Below, piece after piece: positions 1 to 11,439 of a stretch of DNA of 11,929 nucleotides (positions within the stretch are counted from its first letter, which is position 1; each line of letters begins with the position of its first letter). The notes under the pieces are model-generated. The model had not been told where the DNA came from. It saw only the letters and a list, made by a program, of their open reading frames with translations, and ran no database searches. The DNA lies in contig JAUXDE010000053.1 in the NCBI GenBank assembly GCA_030618495.1, positions 1 to 11,929 on the forward strand, read 5' to 3'. The translations under genes and the position numbers were made by a program. Source of the stretch: Clostridia bacterium. Lineage in GTDB: Bacteria > UBA6262 > WVXT01 > JAUXBS01.

Positions 1-1
1 G

Positions 2-1780
2 TCGTTTGTCGTGTACTCCAACTCCTTCAGGAACTCATTTGTATATGATGACGTGTCTTTTATTTCGGATAATCACTATATAAAGAGCATAAAGAACATC
101 CCGCTCCTGTTTACCCGCAAGTACTTTGATTTAAGCAAAGAAAGGACGTACAGGCCCGTATGCACCCTGTCCTTTTTGGTTGACCACGCGTTATGGAAAC
201 TAAACCCGTTTGGCTGGCACCTTACGAACGTTGTCCTGCACGCCGCCAATGCCGTTATGGTTTTCCTGCTCCTGCTTGTTCTCTCAAAAAACAGGATAGC
301 CTCTGCCGCGGCGGGTTTTCTCTTTGCCGTTCACCCCGTCCAGACGGAAGCGGTGCTGGGCATAAGTTTCAGGGAAGACCTGTTATGTTTGTTCTTTTAC
401 CTGCTGACTTTCTGCCTGTACATTATGCTTACGGGCTACGTTAAAATAGCATGGAAGAAAAAGTTTACCCCGGTTGCGCTGTACATAGCTTCTATTTTCA
501 GTTTTACAATGGCGGTATATTCAAAGGAAATGGCGCTCACACTGCCCCTTGTTCTTCTTATATGCGATTTGTGCAACAGGCGCGAATTGAAAAAAAATGA
601 TATTATCTTAAGAGCAGGAAAATACTGGCTCGTTTACTTCATGGTAGCTGTTTCTTTCATGGTATTGAAGTTCACAGCGCTGAGTAACGAAACGATTCCT
701 GCCCTGTACCCTGGCGGGAACCTGTTTACGGCTATGCTGACCATGACGAGGGTGGTTGTTTATTATATAAGGCTCCTGCTCTACCCCATGGTGTTGAACG
801 TCGATTACGTGTTTGGCGCTTCCACTTCAGCGTTTGAGCCGGCGGTACTGTTTTCAACAGCGGTTATTGCCGGGATATTGCTTATTACCTTAAAACTGTA
901 CAATGGTTTAAGAATAGCCTTCTTTGCGGTGATGTTTTTCTTCATTAACCTCGTTCCCGTTTCAAACATAATACCTTTCGGCGCGACAATTGCCGAGCGC
1001 TACCTGTACTTTGCCTCCGTAGGGTACTTCATGCTGGCGGGGCTGGTCATAACGAGAATATACGATTTTGTAAGCGGCAGGCGCGGGAAAAGGCTCGTAA
1101 CGGCGTTTTTCCTGTCCATTCTTGTACTGTATTCAACAAGGACTTTAAGGAGAAACCTTGACTGGAAGGACGGGTTTACCCTGTGGGGAAAAACCCTCAA
1201 AACAAGTCACGAAAGCTACACGGTGCATAACAATCTTGGAGTGGCGTACAAGAAAAAGGGGATGTTAGATGAAGCCATAAAAGAATACAGGAAGACGATT
1301 GAACTCAATCCCTCTTTCGTGAGGGCTATCAACAATATGGGTTATATCTATTACGAGAGGAAGCAGTACGACATGGCAATAGAGGAATACAAGAAAGCGG
1401 TGAAGATAGACCCGGAGTTCGCGGAAGGGTACCTGAACATGGGACTTGTTTATTACGACTTGAAAATGTATGATGATGCCATAGAGGCGTACAATAAAGC
1501 AATAGACGTTAATTATACGAAGTACCAGGCGTACAGCAACCTCATAGCGGCGTACGCACAAAAAGGCATGTTCAAAGAGTCATTGGATGCATTCAATAAA
1601 GGTGTAAAGGTATACCCCGGTTTTGCCGACCTGTATAAGAACGCAGGGCTCGTTCACAGAATGATGAATGATGATGCTCAGGCGCTGGTGTACTGGAATA
1701 AGTACTTAAGGTTATCCCCCGACGCCCCTGATGCTAAAATAATAGGAAATGAAATCAGAAAAATAATCGGGAATAAATAG
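2..1780 (+). CDS. Integral-membrane O-mannosyltransferase-like (TMTC type) protein with C-terminal TPRs, 5' end outside window
   Basis: About the first 370 residues are strongly hydrophobic with many membrane helices. They carry signatures of the GT-C/TMTC-like family: an early Asp-Asp pair in FVYDD, then YRPVCTLSF, the HLTNVVLHAANA stretch, HPVQTEAVLGISFREDLL, YSKEMALTLP and AERYLYFASVGY. From about residue 404 there are five 34-residue tetratricopeptide repeats (for example NNLGVAYKKKGMLDEAI) up to the C terminus. Members are thought to transfer mannose from a lipid-linked donor to proteins at the membrane, with the TPRs holding a partner. Here that is inference from family resemblance. The reading frame is open to the window edge and the first visible residues (SFVVYSNSF) look internal, so the GTG at 11 is probably not the true start and an N-terminal helix is missing. 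It lies 15 bp upstream of trxB on the same strand and may be co-transcribed. Confidence 0.85.
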   Translation, partial: SFVVYSNSFRNSFVYDDVSFISDNHYIKSIKNIPLLFTRKYFDLSKERTYRPVCTLSFLVDHALWKLNPFGWHLTNVVLHAANAVMVFLLLLVLSKNRIASAAAGFLFAVHPVQTEAVLGISFREDLLCLFFYLLTFCLYIMLTGYVKIAWKKKFTPVALYIASIFSFTMAVYSKEMALTLPLVLLICDLCNRRELKKNDIILRAGKYWLVYFMVAVSFMVLKFTALSNETIPALYPGGNLFTAMLTMTRVVVYYIRLLLYPMVLNVDYVFGASTSAFEPAVLFSTAVIAGILLITLKLYNGLRIAFFAVMFFFINLVPVSNIIPFGATIAERYLYFASVGYFMLAGLVITRIYDFVSGRRGKRLVTAFFLSILVLYSTRTLRRNLDWKDGFTLWGKTLKTSHESYTVHNNLGVAYKKKGMLDEAIKEYRKTIELNPSFVRAINNMGYIYYERKQYDMAIEEYKKAVKIDPEFAEGYLNMGLVYYDLKMYDDAIEAYNKAIDVNYTKYQAYSNLIAAYAQKGMFKESLDAFNKGVKVYPGFADLYKNAGLVHRMMNDDAQALVYWNKYLRLSPDAPDAKIIGNEIRKIIGNK

Positions 1781-1782
1781 GA

Positions 1783-1789
1783 AAGGGAG
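1783..1789 (+). promoter_or_regulatory. Ribosome binding site of trxB
   Basis: AAGGGAG lies 6 bases before the ATG at 1796, in the short gap after the TPR gene. It fixes the trxB start. Confidence 0.7.
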
Positions 1790-1795
1790 AAAACA

Positions 1796-2746
1796 ATGGA
1801 AACATACGATGTAATAATAATCGGAGGAGGGCCCGCGGGGCTAACCGCGGGGATGTATTCTTCAAGGGCAAGAATGAAGACACTTCTTCTTGAGAAGTCC
1901 GCTCCCGGGGGACAGCTGTCGCTTACGGACAAGATAGAGAACTACCCGGGATTCCCCGGGGGGATATCGGGCATGGAACTCGTTGAGAATATGAAGAAAC
2001 AGGCGGTAGGGTTCGGCCTTGAGATTGCCTCCGGCGATGTAAGGGAAGTCAGGGAATCGGAGACGGAAAAAGGCAAAGACTGCTGGGAAGTGATAACAAC
2101 CGGCAGCCAGTATACGGCGTTGACGTTGATTGCCGCCTCGGGCGGCAGCGCCCGCAAACTGGACGTGCCGGGTGAAAAGGAATTAACCGGCAGGGGGGTT
2201 TCCTACTGCGCAACCTGCGACGGCGCGTTCTTCAAGGGAAAGGACATAGTGGTTGTGGGCGGCGGTGACGCGGCAGTGGAGGAAGCCCTGTTCCTGACGA
2301 AGTTCGGCAGGCAGGTTACACTGGTTCACCGCCGGGACCGGCTGAGGGCGTCAAAGATACTCCAGGAGAGAGCGGAGGCGAACGAGAAACTCAGGTTCAC
2401 ATGGGACTCGGTGGTTACCGCAATATCCGGGGACAAGAAGGTTCAATCGGTAAAGCTGAAAAACCTCAAGACCCACAAGGAAACGGATTTATCCTGTGAC
2501 GGCGTGTTTATCTTCATCGGGTTCGTACCCGTTACGCATTACCTTAAGGAACTGGTAAACCTTGATGATAAGGGATACATAAAAACCGACAATAACATGA
2601 GCGCCTCCCGCAAGGGTGTATTCGCCTGCGGCGACTGCAGGAGCAAACTGCTTCAGCAGGTGGTCAATGCCTGCGGCGAGGGAGCCCTTGCGTCGTACTC
2701 AGCCGGACAGTACGTTGATGAACTAAAAGGCGTGGCGTATAAATGA
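1796..2746 (+). CDS. trxB: Thioredoxin reductase (NADPH)
   Basis: A 316-residue FAD/NADPH flavoenzyme of normal length for low-Mr bacterial thioredoxin reductase, which passes electrons from NADPH through FAD and a redox disulfide to thioredoxin in the cytoplasm. Visible motifs: the N-terminal FAD dinucleotide-binding loop GGGPAG (residues 10-15), GGQL near 38-41, the redox-active CATC (Cys138 and Cys141), the NADPH loop GGGDAA (155-160), the HRRDRLRAS phosphate-binding segment (178-186) and the second FAD motif GVFACGDC (274-281). Nothing is missing. The start is backed by a good ribosome binding site. The stop codon overlaps the start of the next gene (ATGA), so translation is probably coupled to the NusG-II protein. 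A close relative such as ferredoxin-NADP reductase is unlikely because the CATC motif is intact. Confidence 0.96.
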   Translation: METYDVIIIGGGPAGLTAGMYSSRARMKTLLLEKSAPGGQLSLTDKIENYPGFPGGISGMELVENMKKQAVGFGLEIASGDVREVRESETEKGKDCWEVITTGSQYTALTLIAASGGSARKLDVPGEKELTGRGVSYCATCDGAFFKGKDIVVVGGGDAAVEEALFLTKFGRQVTLVHRRDRLRASKILQERAEANEKLRFTWDSVVTAISGDKKVQSVKLKNLKTHKETDLSCDGVFIFIGFVPVTHYLKELVNLDDKGYIKTDNNMSASRKGVFACGDCRSKLLQQVVNACGEGALASYSAGQYVDELKGVAYK

Positions 2747-3135
2747 GTTTTGACGCGGACTACAAACTTCTAAAAATCTCACTCTACGATAAGGTTCTTA
2801 TCGCAGTAATACTTATCTTTTCAGTCCTGTCGCTGGTGTCGTTTAAAAACAATGCAGAAAGGCAGAGGAAGGCTCTGGTATACCTTAACGGTGATTTCCT
2901 CCAGGAAATTACCCTTGAAAAGAACGCTATCGTTGACTTGCATCTATATGACGGAAGCATGAAACTTGAGGTGACAGGAGGCGGCATAAAGGTCATTGAA
3001 TCGTCATGCCCGCATAAACTGTGCATCAATAAAGGAGCAATAGGGAAGAGAGGGCAGGCAATAGTATGCGCGCCCAACAGGGTTCTTATAAAAATCAAGG
3101 GAGTAGATTCCAAACACGATGCCATCAGCTATTAA
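2743..3135 (+). CDS. Membrane-anchored NusG domain II-containing protein
   Basis: A 130-residue protein with one N-terminal membrane helix (about residues 17-34, LIAVILIFSVLSLVSF) and an outward-facing domain of the NusG_II type. The diagnostic stretch is SSCPHKLCINKG followed by GQAIVCAPNRVLIKI. Three cysteines (89, 94, 109) sit at family-typical places. The function of this family is not established. It is not the transcription factor NusG, which is longer and has an NGN domain. The gene overlaps trxB by 4 bp and the downstream Gx-type gene by 17 bp. A NusG-II gene next to a Gx transporter gene is a recurrent bacterial pairing. The link to trxB and the paired cysteines make redox sensitivity conceivable, but that is inference. 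Confidence 0.85.
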   Translation: MSFDADYKLLKISLYDKVLIAVILIFSVLSLVSFKNNAERQRKALVYLNGDFLQEITLEKNAIVDLHLYDGSMKLEVTGGGIKVIESSCPHKLCINKGAIGKRGQAIVCAPNRVLIKIKGVDSKHDAISY

Positions 3136-4312
3136 TATCAATCCTTTACATGAAGAAGAAATAAAAAGAATCTCGCGGTGGATTGCCATTGCGGTAATAC
3201 TTCAGGTTTCAGAGTCGCTCATACCGCACCCCTTTCCCGGTATAAGACTGGGACTGGCAAACATGGTCGCATTGATAGTGCTTGCAAACCACGGGTTTTC
3301 TAAGGCGCTTTGCGTTAACCTTATAAGAACCGTACTCAGTTCCTTCATCCTCGGCACGTTCATGTCGCCGGCATTTTTCATGAGTTTTTCAAGCGCCCTG
3401 GCAAGCATGCTTGTCATGGGCCTGCTTTATGCCGCCTCAACAGGAAAAAGCAAGGTTTATTTCAGCCTGACAGGCATAAGCGTGGCGGGAGCTTTCGTTC
3501 ACAACCTAACCCAGCTCGTATTCGCCTATATACTACTTATAAGACATCCCGGTATTTTTGTCCTTCTGCCCTGGCTTTCAATCGGCGGGGTTGTCATGGG
3601 GGTTATTACAGGAATCATTGCCCTTGATGTCACCAGAAAACTCAGGGATCCCATCGGAGGACGGTCGTATGTGTACTACAGCGACGGTACTGAACTGCCC
3701 TTTGAAATGAGAAGTTATTTGCCCGGCAATTCCTTTATTCACAGGTTAAAACCCGAAATAAAGATATTTGCGATTATGCTGATAGCGCTGGCGGTGCTTA
3801 TTGTCAATGACCCGCTGTTCTGCGTGATAATGCTGGCGGTAATAGTCACGGCTATAACTTTAAGCGGAATATCCCTCCTGGAAATACTTTCCGGGTTAAA
3901 GAAGGTGGTATTTCTTATACTTATCTCTTTCTTACTGCCGGTGTTATTTAACAGCGGGGGCGAAACCGTTATAAAGGCAGGTTCAATGGTTATCACGCGG
4001 GAAGGATTGTCCGCGGGAACCCTGTTCGGACTCAGGATAATCGTAATGATGATCTCCGCGTCGCTTATGATGCGGACTTCTTCGTCAATAGAACTCACCC
4101 TAGGGTTTGAAAAGGCGCTGGCTCCCCTCAGGGTTTTTGGCGTAGACCATTACAGGATATCAAGGATTATCTCCATGTCATGGCAGTGGATACCCGAACT
4201 CTGGAGGGAAACAAGGGGAATGATGAAGTTCATGCTCTCCGGCAGGGAAAAGGGAATCAAAAAACGCATCTCTGCCATGAGCGACTTCATAGTCTACTTA
4301 TTCAGGAAATAA
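3119..4312 (+). CDS. Gx transporter family S-component fused to EcfT/CbiQ-like transmembrane component
   Basis: A 397-residue membrane protein made of two parts. Residues about 20-172 match the Gx transporter family, historically named heptaprenyl diphosphate synthase component I, with SESLIPHPFPGIRLGLANMV and FVHNLTQLVFAY. Residues about 205-397 resemble the EcfT/CbiQ transmembrane subunit of energy-coupling factor transporters: the HRLKPEIKIF entry, four or so helices, and a C-terminal amphipathic stretch WRETRGMMKFMLSGREKG where coupling helices normally sit. The coupling region lacks a clean Ala-Arg-Gly motif. No EcfA ATPase lies in the window, so energising subunits would have to come from elsewhere. 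The substrate is unknown. The ATG at 3119 overlaps the NusG-II gene by 17 bp, with AAGGGAG 15 bases upstream, a rather long spacing. The last 44 bp of the gene are duplicated at 6095-6138. Confidence 0.82.
   Translation: MPSAININPLHEEEIKRISRWIAIAVILQVSESLIPHPFPGIRLGLANMVALIVLANHGFSKALCVNLIRTVLSSFILGTFMSPAFFMSFSSALASMLVMGLLYAASTGKSKVYFSLTGISVAGAFVHNLTQLVFAYILLIRHPGIFVLLPWLSIGGVVMGVITGIIALDVTRKLRDPIGGRSYVYYSDGTELPFEMRSYLPGNSFIHRLKPEIKIFAIMLIALAVLIVNDPLFCVIMLAVIVTAITLSGISLLEILSGLKKVVFLILISFLLPVLFNSGGETVIKAGSMVITREGLSAGTLFGLRIIVMMISASLMMRTSSSIELTLGFEKALAPLRVFGVDHYRISRIISMSWQWIPELWRETRGMMKFMLSGREKGIKKRISAMSDFIVYLFRK
4269..4312 (+). repeat. Direct repeat copy 1: 3' end of the Gx-EcfT gene
   Basis: These 44 bases, ending exactly at the TAA stop, match 6095-6138 at 39 of 44 positions, including CGACTTCATAGTCTAC and TTCAGGAAATAA. 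The two copies bracket the nucleotidyltransferase/wHTH unit. Similarity stops right after the stop codon. Upstream, a short second match (4235-4245 against 6065-6075, 9 of 11) hints that the homology once ran further. This is an attL-like arrangement, but no integrase is seen. Confidence 0.85.
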
Positions 4313-4381
4313 AATCCACTCTTAACTTTTCCTCCTATCTCGCATATTTTACCTGATAAATAAATATTTTAAATAAAAACC

Positions 4382-4409
4382 TTGACAAACAAGTTATTTA
4401 GGGTATAAT
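4382..4409 (+). promoter_or_regulatory. Strong sigma-70-type promoter of the nucleotidyltransferase/wHTH operon
   Basis: Consensus -35 TTGACA (4382-4387), 16-bp spacer and consensus -10 TATAAT (4404-4409). Expected transcription start is near 4416, which leaves a leader of about 34 bases. This promoter makes the cassette independent of the operon upstream. Confidence 0.85.
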
Positions 4410-4431
4410 ATAAGTTATAGCACTTATATTA
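4406..4431. promoter_or_regulatory. 26-bp palindromic operator candidate over the -10 box and start site
   Basis: Perfect 10-bp inverted repeat TAATATAAGT (4406-4415) and ACTTATATTA (4422-4431) around a 6-base centre. It covers the last four bases of the -10 box and the expected start site, a position where a bound repressor would block polymerase. The winged-HTH protein encoded by the second gene is the obvious candidate to bind it; that link is inference. Confidence 0.7.
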
Positions 4432-4436
4432 AGGGG
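4431..4436 (+). promoter_or_regulatory. Ribosome binding site candidate of the nucleotidyltransferase gene
   Basis: AAGGGG sits 13 bases before the ATG at 4450, longer than ideal. An out-of-frame ATG at 4440 opens a 5-codon ORF (stop ending at 4457) that overlaps the true start, but it lies only 3 bases from this site, too close for good initiation. Confidence 0.5.
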
Positions 4437-4449
4437 TATATGTTATATT

Positions 4450-5052
4450 ATGCTTAATAATAGAGATATAGAAAAATCGCTTATTCTCTTAGGAAAACGT
4501 CTTGAAATAGAAGGAAATGAAATATTTAATATCGTTGTCTGCGGTGGTTCTGCGCTTATAATTACGGGGCTTATTACCGGAAGGATGTTTACAAAGGATG
4601 TGGATCTTGTAGGGCTCGGTTATAAAGATTTAACAGGGAAACTTCAGGTAAGGGAATGTAGAGAATTGCCAAAAACTCTTGAGAAAGCAGTCAGGCAGGT
4701 TGCCAGGGATTTGGGGCTTGAAGACAACTGGTTAAATACGGATCCAACGAGCCTTGTAAGATTTGGTTTGCCAGATGGCTTCACGGAAAGATTGCAGCTA
4801 AAAACATATGGTAAGTTATTGAACGTGTATTTTACAGGCAGGACTGACCAAATATTTTTTAAGTTATATGCGGCCGTTGACCAGGGGCCAGGTAAACATG
4901 TTGATGACTTAAGGGAATTAAGTCCCGCTGATGAAGAGATAGAGAGTGCGGCAAAGTGGGCAATGAAGCATGATGTCAGTGAAAACTTTCGTAATATTTT
5001 AAAGGATATGTTAAGGAAATTAGGATATGACCAAGTCGCTGAAAGAATTTAA
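4450..5052 (+). CDS. DUF6036-like nucleotidyltransferase, probable effector or toxin of a two-gene module
   Basis: A 200-residue soluble protein with the nucleotidyltransferase-fold signature: GGSAL (residues 32-36) after a hydrophobic strand, then the Asp pair KDVDLV (Asp50, Asp52) that normally binds catalytic metal. The tail, with GPGKHVDDLREL and DEEIESAAKWAMKHD, has the layout of DUF6036 proteins. The family is related to the AbiEii/MenT-type nucleotidyltransferases, several of which modify tRNA or nucleotides as toxins. The substrate here is unknown. The coding sequence is AT-rich compared with the transporter gene upstream. It has its own promoter and palindromic operator, and its 3' end overlaps the wHTH gene by 26 bp, indicating coupled expression. 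The ATG at 4450 is the first in-frame start after the promoter. A housekeeping role in nucleotide transfer cannot be excluded. Confidence 0.78.
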   Translation: MLNNRDIEKSLILLGKRLEIEGNEIFNIVVCGGSALIITGLITGRMFTKDVDLVGLGYKDLTGKLQVRECRELPKTLEKAVRQVARDLGLEDNWLNTDPTSLVRFGLPDGFTERLQLKTYGKLLNVYFTGRTDQIFFKLYAAVDQGPGKHVDDLRELSPADEEIESAAKWAMKHDVSENFRNILKDMLRKLGYDQVAERI

Positions 5053-6061
5053 AGATTCTTATTTGGAACTATTAATAGGTTTACTCTGGAGGCAATGGTC
5101 TTCATTGGGAGTGGCGGGATATACAGACACCGGGGATAGTTGGATTATTGACCCGGAAGCGCTTTTTCTGTTTACTTGCAGTATAGGGCGTTATGATGCG
5201 CGGCTATTTGACGAAGCGCTTGACTGGATTAGCGCAAACGGGAATTTCATGAATATTCAGCGGCTGAGAAACATTCTGAAAAAAGAAGAATTTTCAGGAA
5301 GCAGGGTTTTATCAGCGATATCCGGGATTATGGAAAAAAGGACCAGGTCGTATAAATGGAAAATATTATCCGGGTTCAGTCAAAATAAAACCATTGATAA
5401 TGAAGAACCTCTTTTTTTCTACAAAGATGGAAAGCACATTGAAAGCTATGGGGAGCAAGATGATGATTTTAAGGCATATGGATTTATCCGGGGGCAAAAA
5501 GAATTCTCCCGCAAGACGCAATCCGTAAACATGGCAAAGAATTCAGGGTTGCTCTTTAAACTGCGTACTTTGTTTGGCGTGAATGCCAGAAGTGAGATTA
5601 TCCTTTACCTGCTTACACATGGAAGGGCTCATCCGAGTTTAGTAGCCAGGGAAATGTATTATTCTCAAAAGGCGGTTCAGGATACACTTGTTGAAATGGC
5701 AAAATCAGGATTGGTTCTTGTCAGTTCCGTGGGCAAAGAAAAACAATATATACTGCCCAGGGATAAATGGTTTGAATTTCTGGAATGTCATGATGAACAA
5801 CCAAAATGGTTGAATTGGGCGCTGATATTAAGAACTCTTGAAAAAATATGGATGAAACTTAATGACAATAAGATACTTGGATATGATCCATTACTGCAAT
5901 CATCGGAACTAAGAGTTTTAATGCAGGAAGTAAGACCGAAGATAGAGAATGCGGGTTTTTCGGAAGTACTCACTGATGACAGGTTGCATCCTGGGGAGAA
6001 TTATTCTGTGATATTTTTCCGGGATGTAAAAAGGTTACTAGAGGCCATTTCAAACAATTAG
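5027..6061 (+). CDS. Winged helix-turn-helix protein, partner of the upstream nucleotidyltransferase
   Basis: A 344-residue soluble protein. The N-terminal 110 residues are mostly helical, with LLIGLLWRQWSSLGV, an EALFLFTCSIGRYDARLFDEALDWI-type stretch split over residues 44-68, and NIQRLRNIL. A linker follows. Residues about 183-245 form a winged helix: NARSEIILYLL, then HPSLVAREMYYSQKAVQDTL as helix-turn-helix and GLVLVSSVGKEKQYILP as the wing. The C-terminal 90 residues are helical and of unknown role. By context it is probably the regulator and antitoxin of the nucleotidyltransferase, acting at the palindrome at 4406-4431. It is not recognisably AbiEi, and the gene order (nucleotidyltransferase first) differs from AbiE. 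The ATG at 5027 has AAGGA at 5013-5017 inside the upstream gene. Base composition is AT-rich like its partner. Confidence 0.75.
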   Translation: MTKSLKEFKDSYLELLIGLLWRQWSSLGVAGYTDTGDSWIIDPEALFLFTCSIGRYDARLFDEALDWISANGNFMNIQRLRNILKKEEFSGSRVLSAISGIMEKRTRSYKWKILSGFSQNKTIDNEEPLFFYKDGKHIESYGEQDDDFKAYGFIRGQKEFSRKTQSVNMAKNSGLLFKLRTLFGVNARSEIILYLLTHGRAHPSLVAREMYYSQKAVQDTLVEMAKSGLVLVSSVGKEKQYILPRDKWFEFLECHDEQPKWLNWALILRTLEKIWMKLNDNKILGYDPLLQSSELRVLMQEVRPKIENAGFSEVLTDDRLHPGENYSVIFFRDVKRLLEAISNN

Positions 6062-6094
6062 TTCCTGTCCTGCAGCTTTTTATTATAATACCCC

Positions 6095-6138
6095 TCTCTG
6101 TCCTGACCGACTTCATAGTCTACCTCTTCAGGAAATAA
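6095..6138 (+). repeat. Direct repeat copy 2: displaced transporter-gene 3' end
   Basis: 39 of 44 bases equal 4269-4312. In the same frame it still reads LTDFIVYLFRK and a TAA stop, against MSDFIVYLFRK in the intact gene. The five differences include two synonymous changes in one Leu codon (TTA against CTC), which look like divergence between homologous genes rather than random decay. No start or open frame leads into it, so it is not an expressed gene. It marks the right edge of the inserted unit. Confidence 0.85.
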
Positions 6139-6169: not shown

Positions 6170-6247
6170 ATGAAAACAACATACATTAAACGAATAATTG
6201 AACACCACTTGGATTTCAAGAATGTCCTGGATGTGTTAGGGTATTAA
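6170..6247 (+). pseudogene. 25-codon ORF, possible gene-start remnant
   Basis: Starts ATG and begins MKTTYIKRIIEHH, ends DVLGY and TAA. The opening vaguely resembles the first residues of some DUF4143-type ATPases, so it may be the relic of a displaced 5' end. There is no ribosome binding site. A chance ORF is equally possible. Confidence 0.2.
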
Positions 6248-6300
6248 AAGGCATATCCTGCTAAACAGCGGGTTATAATGTTTATCAGAACATAAACCTG

Positions 6301-6429: not shown

Positions 6430-7743
6430 ATGAAACGTGATATTTATACTAATTTAGTTAAATGGAAGAATTCCAGCCGACGAAAACCACTGATCTTTCA
6501 GGGCGCAAGGCAGGTAGGGAAAACCTACATCTTGAAAGAATTCGGCAAGAATGAATACCAGAATACTGCTTATTTTAATTTTGAGGAGGATTCTACATTA
6601 AATGATTTTTTTAAAGGGAAACTTAACCCGGTAAAAATCATTAAGAAATTATCAATTTATTTAGAGAAAGAAATCTTACCTGAGAAAACCCTAATCATTT
6701 TTGACGAGATTCAAAATTCACCCGAAACCTTGACCAGTTTAAAATATTTTAACGAGAATGCCAATCAATTTCATGTTGCTACAGCGGGTTCTTTACTTGG
6801 AATAAAAGTTGGGCAATCTGCTCCATTCCCGGTAGGCAAAGTAAACTTTCTAAATCTTTATCCATTTACTTTTGGTGAATACCTTGATGGTATTAATAAA
6901 TCAAGGATTCGTCAGTTCCTGAATAGCATTACAACTCTGGAACCGATTGAAGAAGGGTTTCATAATGAACTAATTGAAGCTTTGAAAATGTATTACTTTG
7001 TTGGAGGAATGCCGGAGGCAATATTACAATACAAAAAAGACGAAAACCTTGAAGAAGTAAGAACCGTTCAAAAAGAGATACTATCAGCATATGCAATGGA
7101 TTTCTCAAAACATGCAAAAAAACCTGACGCAATAAAAAGCACAAATACCTGGAACTCCATTCCTGTACAATTGGCTAAAGAAAACAAAAAATTCATGTTT
7201 TCGGAGTTGTCAAAGAACGCAAGGAATAGAGATTATAATGAATCAATCAGGTGGCTTGTGGATGCTGGATTGGTTTATCAATGTTTTAACATTAAGACCC
7301 CGAGGTTGCCTTTAAGCGGATATAAGAAGAACAATATTTTTAAGCTTTACCTGCTTGATACGGGGCTATTAGGCGCTATGTTGGAGTTGTCATACAAAAC
7401 AGTTGTTAAAGGTAATCAACTATTTTCAGAATATAATGGCGCATTTACAGAAAACTACGTTGCCCAGGAACTAATTGCTAATAATCACGGAGAACTTTAT
7501 TACTGGTCAAGCAATAGTATTGCTGAAGTTGATTTCATAATACACTATGACGGATATGTTTATCCCCTTGAGGTAAAATCAGGAGTAAGTACCAAGAAAA
7601 AAAGCCTCAAAATATATGGTAATAAATATAATGTTCCTATCCTCGCCCGTTCAACCTTAATGAATTTTAAGCAGGATGGCAGGATTTGCAATTATCCATT
7701 ATATGCTATTTCACATTTCCCTAAAATTAGCATGATTAAATAG
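6430..7743 (+). CDS. AAA family ATPase with DUF4143-type C-terminal domain
   Basis: A 437-residue protein of typical length for this widespread, mostly uncharacterised group. The N-terminal P-loop ATPase domain has Walker A GARQVGKT (residues 25-32), Walker B LIIFDE (88-93), the ATAGSLLG segment (118-125) and the family-typical FPVGKVNFLNLYPFTFGEYL. The C-terminal DUF4143 domain carries a restriction-nuclease-like pattern: AEVDF (Asp368) followed by PLEVKSG (Glu381, Lys383), preceded by ENYVAQELI. Such genes are often scattered in accessory regions of bacteria and archaea, and a role in mobile-element or defence biology has been suggested but not shown. The ATG at 6430 is chosen over the upstream TTG because the TTG coincides with the -35 box. 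The gene is AT-rich, unlike the patatin gene that starts 4 bp after its stop. Confidence 0.9.
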   Translation: MKRDIYTNLVKWKNSSRRKPLIFQGARQVGKTYILKEFGKNEYQNTAYFNFEEDSTLNDFFKGKLNPVKIIKKLSIYLEKEILPEKTLIIFDEIQNSPETLTSLKYFNENANQFHVATAGSLLGIKVGQSAPFPVGKVNFLNLYPFTFGEYLDGINKSRIRQFLNSITTLEPIEEGFHNELIEALKMYYFVGGMPEAILQYKKDENLEEVRTVQKEILSAYAMDFSKHAKKPDAIKSTNTWNSIPVQLAKENKKFMFSELSKNARNRDYNESIRWLVDAGLVYQCFNIKTPRLPLSGYKKNNIFKLYLLDTGLLGAMLELSYKTVVKGNQLFSEYNGAFTENYVAQELIANNHGELYYWSSNSIAEVDFIIHYDGYVYPLEVKSGVSTKKKSLKIYGNKYNVPILARSTLMNFKQDGRICNYPLYAISHFPKISMIK

Positions 7744-11331: not shown

Positions 11332-11345
11332 CCTGCCTCAATATG

Positions 11346-11392
11346 CCCTTCGACTTCGCTCAGGATATATGACCCTTCAACTTCGCTCAGGA
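11346..11392. repeat. Two REP-like tandem repeats
   Basis: CCCTTCGACTTCGCTCAGGA (11346-11365) is repeated with one change (G to A) at 11373-11392, a 27-bp period. The CTTCGACTTCGCTCAGG motif is a known type of dispersed intergenic repeat in several bacterial groups. A degenerate echo of the spacer (AGGATCTATGACCTT) begins at 11404. Confidence 0.75.
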
Positions 11393-11439
11393 CCTACGGC
11401 TTAGGATCTATGACCTTCTTCCCGGAGAGGTGAAAGAAG

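What the first reader, a model, noticed from the sequence alone, without database searches (positions are those of the whole stretch)
4269..6138. Nucleotidyltransferase/wHTH cassette bracketed by a duplicated gene 3' end
The last 44 bp of the Gx-EcfT gene, including its stop codon, recur at 6095-6138 (39 of 44 identical) just beyond the two-gene cassette. The second copy still reads LTDFIVYLFRK and a stop, with two synonymous changes in one Leu codon. This looks like insertion at a gene 3' end where the incoming DNA supplied a replacement end from a related allele. Elements that use tRNA or protein-gene 3' ends as attachment sites leave such traces, but no recombinase is present. It could be a minimal mobile cassette moved in trans.
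Basis: partly seen in the sequence, partly recalled or inferred. Interest (0 to 1): 0.72.

Follow-up and report, generated by a model that had tools for sequence, protein, structure and literature searches.

The report
Toxin-like gene pair jumping into gene ends
A small two-gene module (a toxin-like nucleotidyltransferase and a DNA-binding partner) sits at the end of a transporter gene and leaves a second, worn copy of that gene end behind it; sister modules in other bacteria show the same scar, so this looks like a recurring way for defence-type genes to move without any transposase of their own.

Summary
In detail: the last 57 bp of the Gx-EcfT gene (4256-4312) recur at 6082-6138 (47/57; 39/44 over the stated stretch), with only these two copies found in the genome. 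Between them lies a two-gene operon: a MenT-like nucleotidyltransferase (DUF6036) and a winged-helix protein.

Of 80 homologous loci, 74 keep the pair. Direct repeats close to both cassette borders occur in 9 of 64 loci against 15 of 1622 shifted controls. The clearest cases are gene ends: nadA, hypE, hsdM, a beta-helix gene. In one Planctomycete the cassette carries ~100 bp of a nadA 3' end that is 92% identical to another genome's nadA but 79% to its own, so the imported DNA did bring a foreign gene end. Same-genus genomes show an empty site, and a HigBA toxin-antitoxin pair where a relative has this cassette. About 30 loci carry the pair inside type I restriction operons.

Best reading: a toxin-antitoxin or defence cassette without its own recombinase, imported on short DNA and integrated at gene 3' ends by host recombination. 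This resembles 'insertion with long target duplication' of restriction genes. For the window no empty site exists, and its tail looks neutrally decayed.

The parts
3119..4312 (+). Gx (Hpre_diP_synt_I) - EcfT (CbiQ) fusion gene, 397 aa, the target gene whose 3' end is duplicated
   Evidence: Pfam PF07456 E 1.4e-37 and PF02361 E 3.1e-18; EcfT part ends earlier than relatives' 264-aa EcfT
4256..4312 (+). copy 1 of the gene 3' end, including stop codon TAA
   Evidence: the repeat finder family D1, blastn E 2.5e-10
4313..4449 (+). left part of the cassette: spacer, sigma70-type promoter (TTGACA 4382-4387, TATAAT 4404-4409) and overlapping palindrome (4406-4415 / 4422-4431, 10-bp perfect arms; longer imperfect arms 4405-4426/4430-4451)
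   Evidence: sequence, inverted repeat I3, palindrome scan; homology with the G001 cassette begins at 4375
4450..5052 (+). NT: 200-aa nucleotidyltransferase, DUF6036, MenT-like fold, putative toxin
   Evidence: PF19502 E 4.5e-6; AF2 model pLDDT 96; MenT4 6y56 Z 8.9 (rmsd 3.5, 168 residues), MenT1 8an4 Z 7.6; D50, D52, R131, D133, K138 invariant in 48 homologs
5027..6061 (+). WH: 344-aa winged-helix protein, overlaps NT by 26 bp, putative antitoxin/repressor
   Evidence: wHTH residues ~182-252; AF2 pLDDT 93; paired with NT in 74 of 80 homologous loci
6082..6138 (+). copy 2: displaced, decayed gene 3' end, 20 bp after the WH stop codon
   Evidence: 47/57 identical; only two copies in the genome
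4375..6043 (+). stretch homologous to the cassette at another locus in the sister genome G001 (69% DNA identity): minimal mobile unit
   Evidence: (L030)

Best explanation
The window holds a chromosomal toxin-antitoxin-like or defence cassette (own promoter and palindromic operator, MenT-like nucleotidyltransferase, winged-helix partner) that moved into the 3' end of the Gx-EcfT gene. Most likely it arrived on a short piece of DNA from a relative, carrying about 50-120 bp of the neighbouring gene's 3' end. That piece recombined with the resident gene through this short homology: either single crossover of a circularised fragment, or homologous recombination on one side and illegitimate joining on the other. 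The gene stays complete because one copy of the end remains attached to its body; the other copy is left as a tail on the far side of the cassette. Shown: the duplication, the conserved gene pair, recurrence at unrelated genes, empty sites in a sister genus, a foreign gene end carried with the cassette in one sister locus. Inferred: the crossover mechanism, that the window followed the same route, and the toxin-antitoxin function.
For: Duplication confirmed. Gene pair conserved in 74/80 loci with overlapping frames. Direct repeats (>=30 bp, E<1e-4) within 500 bp on both sides: 9 of 64 cassettes against 15 of 1622 shifted pseudo-cassettes, Fisher p 8e-8; without the window and two simple-repeat cases 6 of 63, p 8e-5. 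Right copy begins 5-31 bp after the WH stop in most cases. L149: hypE - cassette - nadA 3' fragment - hypE 3' fragment - nadA; the nadA fragment is 92% identical to L147's nadA including the cassette junction but 79% to its own nadA. Copies in L149, L147, L144 and L083 differ mostly synonymously, 36 of 61 against 28% expected, p 4e-7, so they look like different alleles. Empty site: G294 and G292 against G076. Cassette swap: G076 has HigBA where G292 has NT-WH, and G292 keeps a 32-bp remnant matching the higA start. Sister genome of the window's genus has the cassette elsewhere, and G000's carB site lacks it. No relative on phages, plasmids or viral contigs. HFIR and circularisation plus single crossover are documented routes (PMC3240628).
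Against: No empty site or relative covers the window's own junctions. The window's tail differs from copy 1 without coding constraint, so for it a plain duplication at insertion followed by decay fits as well. Most cassettes (55 of 64) show no such repeats, some being fixed in type I R-M operons; the best empty-site pair (G076) shows a clean insertion without a long duplication. HFIR is rare, usually gives insertion with deletion rather than duplication, and 50-120 bp of 80-95% identical DNA is poor substrate for RecA (general knowledge). Toxicity and antitoxin activity are untested.
Confidence: 0.6

Rival explanations
1. Insertion with long target duplication: the cassette inserted by an unknown staggered-break mechanism that duplicated ~57 bp of the resident gene end; the copy not attached to the gene then decayed neutrally. 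No foreign gene end was involved.
For: Same final structure as described for restriction-modification genes in H. pylori (cited in PMC3031569, PMC1643837). The window's differences show no coding constraint, 2 synonymous of 10.
Against: In four sister loci the copies differ mostly synonymously, and in L149 the duplicated nadA end comes from another lineage. Similarity of copies stops at or within about 3 bp of the stop codon in the window, L149, L147, L144 and L087, as expected if intergenic DNA of two alleles has diverged but not for a random duplication.
Confidence: 0.25
2. Site-specific integrative element in which an integrase acting in trans uses the gene 3' end as attachment site (as islands do at tRNA or protein-gene ends).
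For: Gene 3' end, replaced end, direct repeats of 50-120 bp.
Against: Target genes differ from case to case and share no core; copies are 79-95% rather than identical; the unit has no integrase and none was found among the window genes scanned; no phage, plasmid or viral contig carries it.
Confidence: 0.05
3. Pre-existing duplication: the gene end was duplicated first (tandem duplication or a decayed paralog), and the cassette later landed in the spare DNA between the copies.
For: Cannot be excluded without an empty site; L130 shows several copies of one ~150-bp repeat flanking different cassettes.
Against: Only 57 bp are duplicated, nothing longer, and no third copy exists; enrichment of border repeats around cassettes over shifted controls would need an independent preference for duplicated ends.
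Confidence: 0.09
4. Chance resemblance or selection on the same short peptide end.
For: None beyond the shortness of the repeat.
Against: E 2.5e-10 within 12 kb; in the last 30 bp only one codon differs although copy 2 has no gene body.
Confidence: 0.01

Closest known systems
Insertion with long target duplication of restriction-modification genes (Nobusato et al. 2000 Gene 259:99; Furuta et al. 2010), read here through PMC3031569 and PMC1643837
   Same: A small toxin-antidote-like gene complex without transposase, flanked by direct repeats of long and variable length made of target sequence
   Different: Cargo is a nucleotidyltransferase/winged-helix pair, not an R-M system; repeats are mostly gene 3' ends; in at least one locus the extra end demonstrably comes from a foreign allele. 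The original papers are not held here and were not read.
Homology-facilitated illegitimate recombination, and circularisation plus single crossover, of incoming DNA (PMC3240628); displacement of effector-immunity modules in Vibrio T6SS clusters (PMC5361080)
   Same: Short homology at a gene end anchors foreign DNA; an old gene end is left displaced downstream
   Different: T6SS modules replace an effector at one fixed locus; here one cassette family enters many unrelated genes
MenAT / AbiE nucleotidyltransferase toxin-antitoxin systems
   Same: NT model aligns best with MenT4, MenT1 and MenT3/TglT; partner has a winged helix; autoregulated-looking promoter
   Different: Gene order is NT first, then WH; WH is 344 aa with an ArsR-like wHTH in its middle and no hit to the AbiEi family; sequence similarity to MenT is below significance
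R-M guardian genes such as prrC inside the EcoprrI type I operon (PMC12707154)
   Same: About 30 of 80 NT-WH pairs lie between hsdM and hsdS of a type I R-M operon
   Different: Two genes with an NTase instead of an anticodon nuclease; function untested; the window's copy is not in such an operon

Membership tests
Insertion with long target duplication | Insert flanked by direct repeats of target sequence, tens of bp or more | tested here: met
   57 bp at 82% identity in the window; 52-120 bp in sister loci
Insertion with long target duplication | Empty allele with a single copy of the target in a related genome | tested here: inconclusive
   No relative covers the window's site; a sister cassette has an empty site but no long duplication
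Insertion with long target duplication | Second copy derives from the resident target | tested here: inconclusive
   Window tail neutral in pattern; in L149 one duplicated end is foreign
Integrase-dependent element at a gene 3' end | Encodes or is mobilised by a site-specific recombinase with a fixed core | tested here: not met
   No recombinase among window genes scanned; different target genes without common core. Action in trans not fully excluded
MenT/AbiEii nucleotidyltransferase toxin | Nucleotidyltransferase fold with catalytic acidic pair | tested here: met
   Model aligned to MenT4 Z 8.9 and MenT1 Z 7.6; D50 and D52 invariant in 48 sequences
MenT/AbiEii nucleotidyltransferase toxin | Sequence match to AbiEii (PF08843) or MenT families | tested here: not met
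   Only DUF6036 in Pfam; MenT1 by profile E 0.43; no PADLOC or NCBIfam hit for NT
Toxin-antitoxin system | Two-gene operon, conserved pairing, autoregulatory promoter | tested here: met
   74 of 80 loci, overlapping genes; promoter palindromes in several members, e.g. 20-bp perfect arms in L076; that the palindrome is an operator is inferred
Toxin-antitoxin system | Toxicity of one gene neutralised by the other | not testable with these tools
   Needs expression assay
Type I R-M guardian module | Located inside a type I R-M operon | tested here: not met
   Not in the window; about 30 of 80 homologs are so placed

The most novel reading that the evidence does not exclude
A class of recombinase-free mobile cassettes that carry a short end of whatever gene they last sat beside and use it as a ready-made homology arm: host recombination at the same gene in a relative inserts the cassette, repairs the gene with the carried end, and leaves the old end as a tail, so that conserved gene 3' ends act as a general docking system for toxin-antitoxin and restriction cassettes.
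Probability: 0.3. Interest if true: 0.75.

Novelty: new variant of a known kind. Interest (0 to 1): 0.55.

Why it matters
How small toxin-antitoxin and defence modules spread through chromosomes without transposons is a long-standing question. A recurrent scar (a duplicated gene end next to the module, sometimes from a foreign allele) gives a concrete, searchable signature of that movement and makes the homologous-recombination route testable. It also singles out an uncharacterised nucleotidyltransferase/winged-helix pair, not found in the literature searched under its Pfam name DUF6036, that occurs both as a free cassette and inside type I restriction operons.

Tried and rejected
Relatives of the window's genus: only one, 76% complete, its contig ends inside the Gx gene, so no empty site for the window. 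Right flank of the window in that relative: only the 8761-9429 gene found, on another contig. Order-level relatives carry Gx and EcfT as separate genes, so the fusion's 3' end has no ortholog there. Cassette on plasmids, phages or viral contigs: none. A longer homology of copy 2 towards the WH stop: not significant. A decayed AAA_14 start at ~6172-6249: DNA and peptide comparison with other AAA_14 genes of the genome gave nothing convincing. PADLOC for NT: nothing; for WH only a weak CARF-type hit in the wHTH region. A first codon test on L147 used the wrong frame and was redone. G001 HDAC/C4 overlap of 87 bp may be an assembly-graph overlap, so it is not counted as a duplication. L129 and oL069 repeats are simple or palindromic and were set aside; L130's repeat is a several-copy element rather than a clear gene end. 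Literature searches for a described NT/wHTH pair in type I operons or for toxin-antitoxin insertion with duplicated ends gave nothing specific.
Full report
Observation. The window carries a Gx-EcfT fusion gene (3119-4312), a two-gene operon (NT 4450-5052, WH 5027-6061) and, 20 bp after WH, a second copy of the fusion gene's end. It is far outside chance (E 2.5e-10 within the window) and is found only twice in the genome. NT is DUF6036 (PF19502), WH has no Pfam family.

The cassette family. An alignment of WH led to 80 loci in genomes of many phyla. In 74 the NT gene lies just upstream, usually overlapping WH by about 25 bp. NT's predicted fold (pLDDT 96) is closest to the MenT toxins (MenT4 Z 8.9, MenT1 Z 7.6) with the acidic pair D50/D52 invariant. 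These Z-scores are middling, and the sequence match to MenT1 is not significant. WH contains an ArsR-like winged helix at ~182-252. The promoter regions of several members carry strong palindromes between -10 and start (20-bp perfect arms in L076; 10-bp perfect arms in the window). This is the build of an autoregulated toxin-antitoxin operon; the function itself is inferred. In about 30 of the 80 loci the pair lies inside a type I restriction operon, hsdM - NT - WH - hsdS - hsdR, a placement known for restriction guardians such as PrrC (PMC12707154).

Mobility. In the only other genome of the window's genus, a 69% identical cassette lies elsewhere, between an HDAC gene end and carB; the window genome's carB has no cassette beside it. 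In a second genus, G076 carries the cassette at the 3' end of an O-antigen-ligase-like gene while G294 and G292 have the uninterrupted site; the gene's last codons were exchanged (KNIQLLGR* to KNINSLKKEP*) and no long duplication was left. Conversely, G292 carries its cassette at a place where G076 has a HigB/HigA pair, and G292 keeps a 32-bp remnant matching the start of higA. In L130 the cassette and an AbiEi/AbiEii pair sit between copies of the same repeat. No relative was found on phages, plasmids or viral contigs.

Duplicated gene ends recur. Comparing 500 bp on each side of the cassette, repeats of 30 bp or more at E<1e-4 occur in 9 of 64 loci and in 15 of 1622 positions where the cassette's outline was shifted along the same contigs (Fisher p 8e-8; leaving out the window and two simple-repeat cases 6 of 63, p 8e-5). 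The shifted positions on one contig are not independent of each other, so the p-values are indicative. The duplicated pieces include the 3' ends of hypE and nadA (L149), nadA (L147), hsdM-like genes (L144, L087), a beta-helix gene (L126) and a piece near a gene end in L083, each about 50-120 bp. The right copy usually starts 5-31 bp after the WH stop.

Where the second end comes from. L147 and L149 are two related Planctomycetes. L149 reads hypE - cassette - nadA 3' fragment - hypE 3' fragment - nadA. The nadA fragment is 92% identical to the nadA beside L147's cassette, including the junction with the cassette, and only 79% identical to L149's own nadA. So the cassette travelled with about 100 bp of a foreign gene end. 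In L147 the gene next to the cassette ends MIS*, whereas the displaced fragment ends MISIRTG*, resembling L149's native MISIKTGR*: the resident end was pushed aside and replaced. Across L149, L147, L144 and L083 the copies differ mainly at synonymous sites (36 of 61 differences, expectation 28%, p 4e-7), as expected for two alleles that both evolved as coding DNA.

Mechanism. The structure fits recombination through a short carried gene end: a single crossover of a circularised fragment duplicates the homologous stretch, keeps one complete gene and leaves the other end as a tail. Homologous recombination on one side with illegitimate joining on the other gives a similar product. Both routes are documented (PMC3240628), and a related displacement of old gene ends has been proposed for Vibrio T6SS modules (PMC5361080). 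The first-reader idea of an attachment-site element is unlikely, since the targets share no gene and no core. The general phenomenon has a close precedent in the 'insertion with long target duplication' of restriction-modification genes (cited; the primary paper was not available).

What remains open for the window. No relative covers its junctions, so it is not known which end is native. Its 10 differences are 2 synonymous and 8 not, the neutral expectation, which means the tail has decayed and would look the same after a simple duplication. The assignment of the window to the imported-end route therefore rests on its sister loci. Most cassettes show no duplication, so the scar marks only part of the insertions.

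Noticed in passing
L095, L096, L101-L103, L110, L116, L123, L124, L133 and others: NT-WH pair lies between hsdM and hsdS of complete-looking type I restriction operons, a possible guardian or regulatory module
   Followed up: partly
L188 (G076:C17) 1397-2017 against L167 (G292:C64) 1236-1267: HigBA toxin-antitoxin pair occupies the gene-end site where the sister genome has the NT-WH cassette; a 32-bp stretch matching the start of higA remains beside the cassette
   Followed up: yes
L130 303-513, 4050-4196, 6066-6227, 8232-8413: Four copies of a ~150-bp repeat; NT-WH cassette and an AbiEi/AbiEii pair lie in successive intervals
   Followed up: partly
L031 (G001:C286) 552-3687 against window 1-3136: 99.4% identity to the window although other loci of the two genomes are only 69-87% identical: contamination of the bin or a recent transfer
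   Followed up: no
L031 3689-3813: Inverted-repeat element (ggggtcaggtcttgacatgtgac ... gtcacatgtcaagacctgacccc) inserted between the NusG_II and Gx genes, absent from the window; looks like a REP/MITE
   Followed up: no
L126 / L063 (G081:C5) 1-59 and 3606-3664: Contig ends overlap by 59 bp, suggesting a 3.6-kb circle holding the cassette and a beta-helix gene, or collapsed tandem paralogs
   Followed up: no
L068 4132-4234 and 6790-6892: 103-bp, 97% identical repeat of what may be a cas6-like gene 5' end (identity by eye) on both sides of a cassette
   Followed up: partly
window 6430-7740: AAA_14/DUF4143 ATPase matching PADLOC candidate PDC-S01 (E 2.5e-168), shortly after the displaced gene end; possible second inserted defence-type gene before the patatin gene
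   Followed up: partly
L147 1480-3214 against L149 4319-6045: Cassette identity is mosaic, 61-93% in 150-bp blocks with the WH 3' part most alike, pointing to recombination between cassettes
   Followed up: no
window 11345-11415: Short dispersed repeats of the type cttcgactncgctcaggac found at several contigs of this and the sister genome
   Followed up: no
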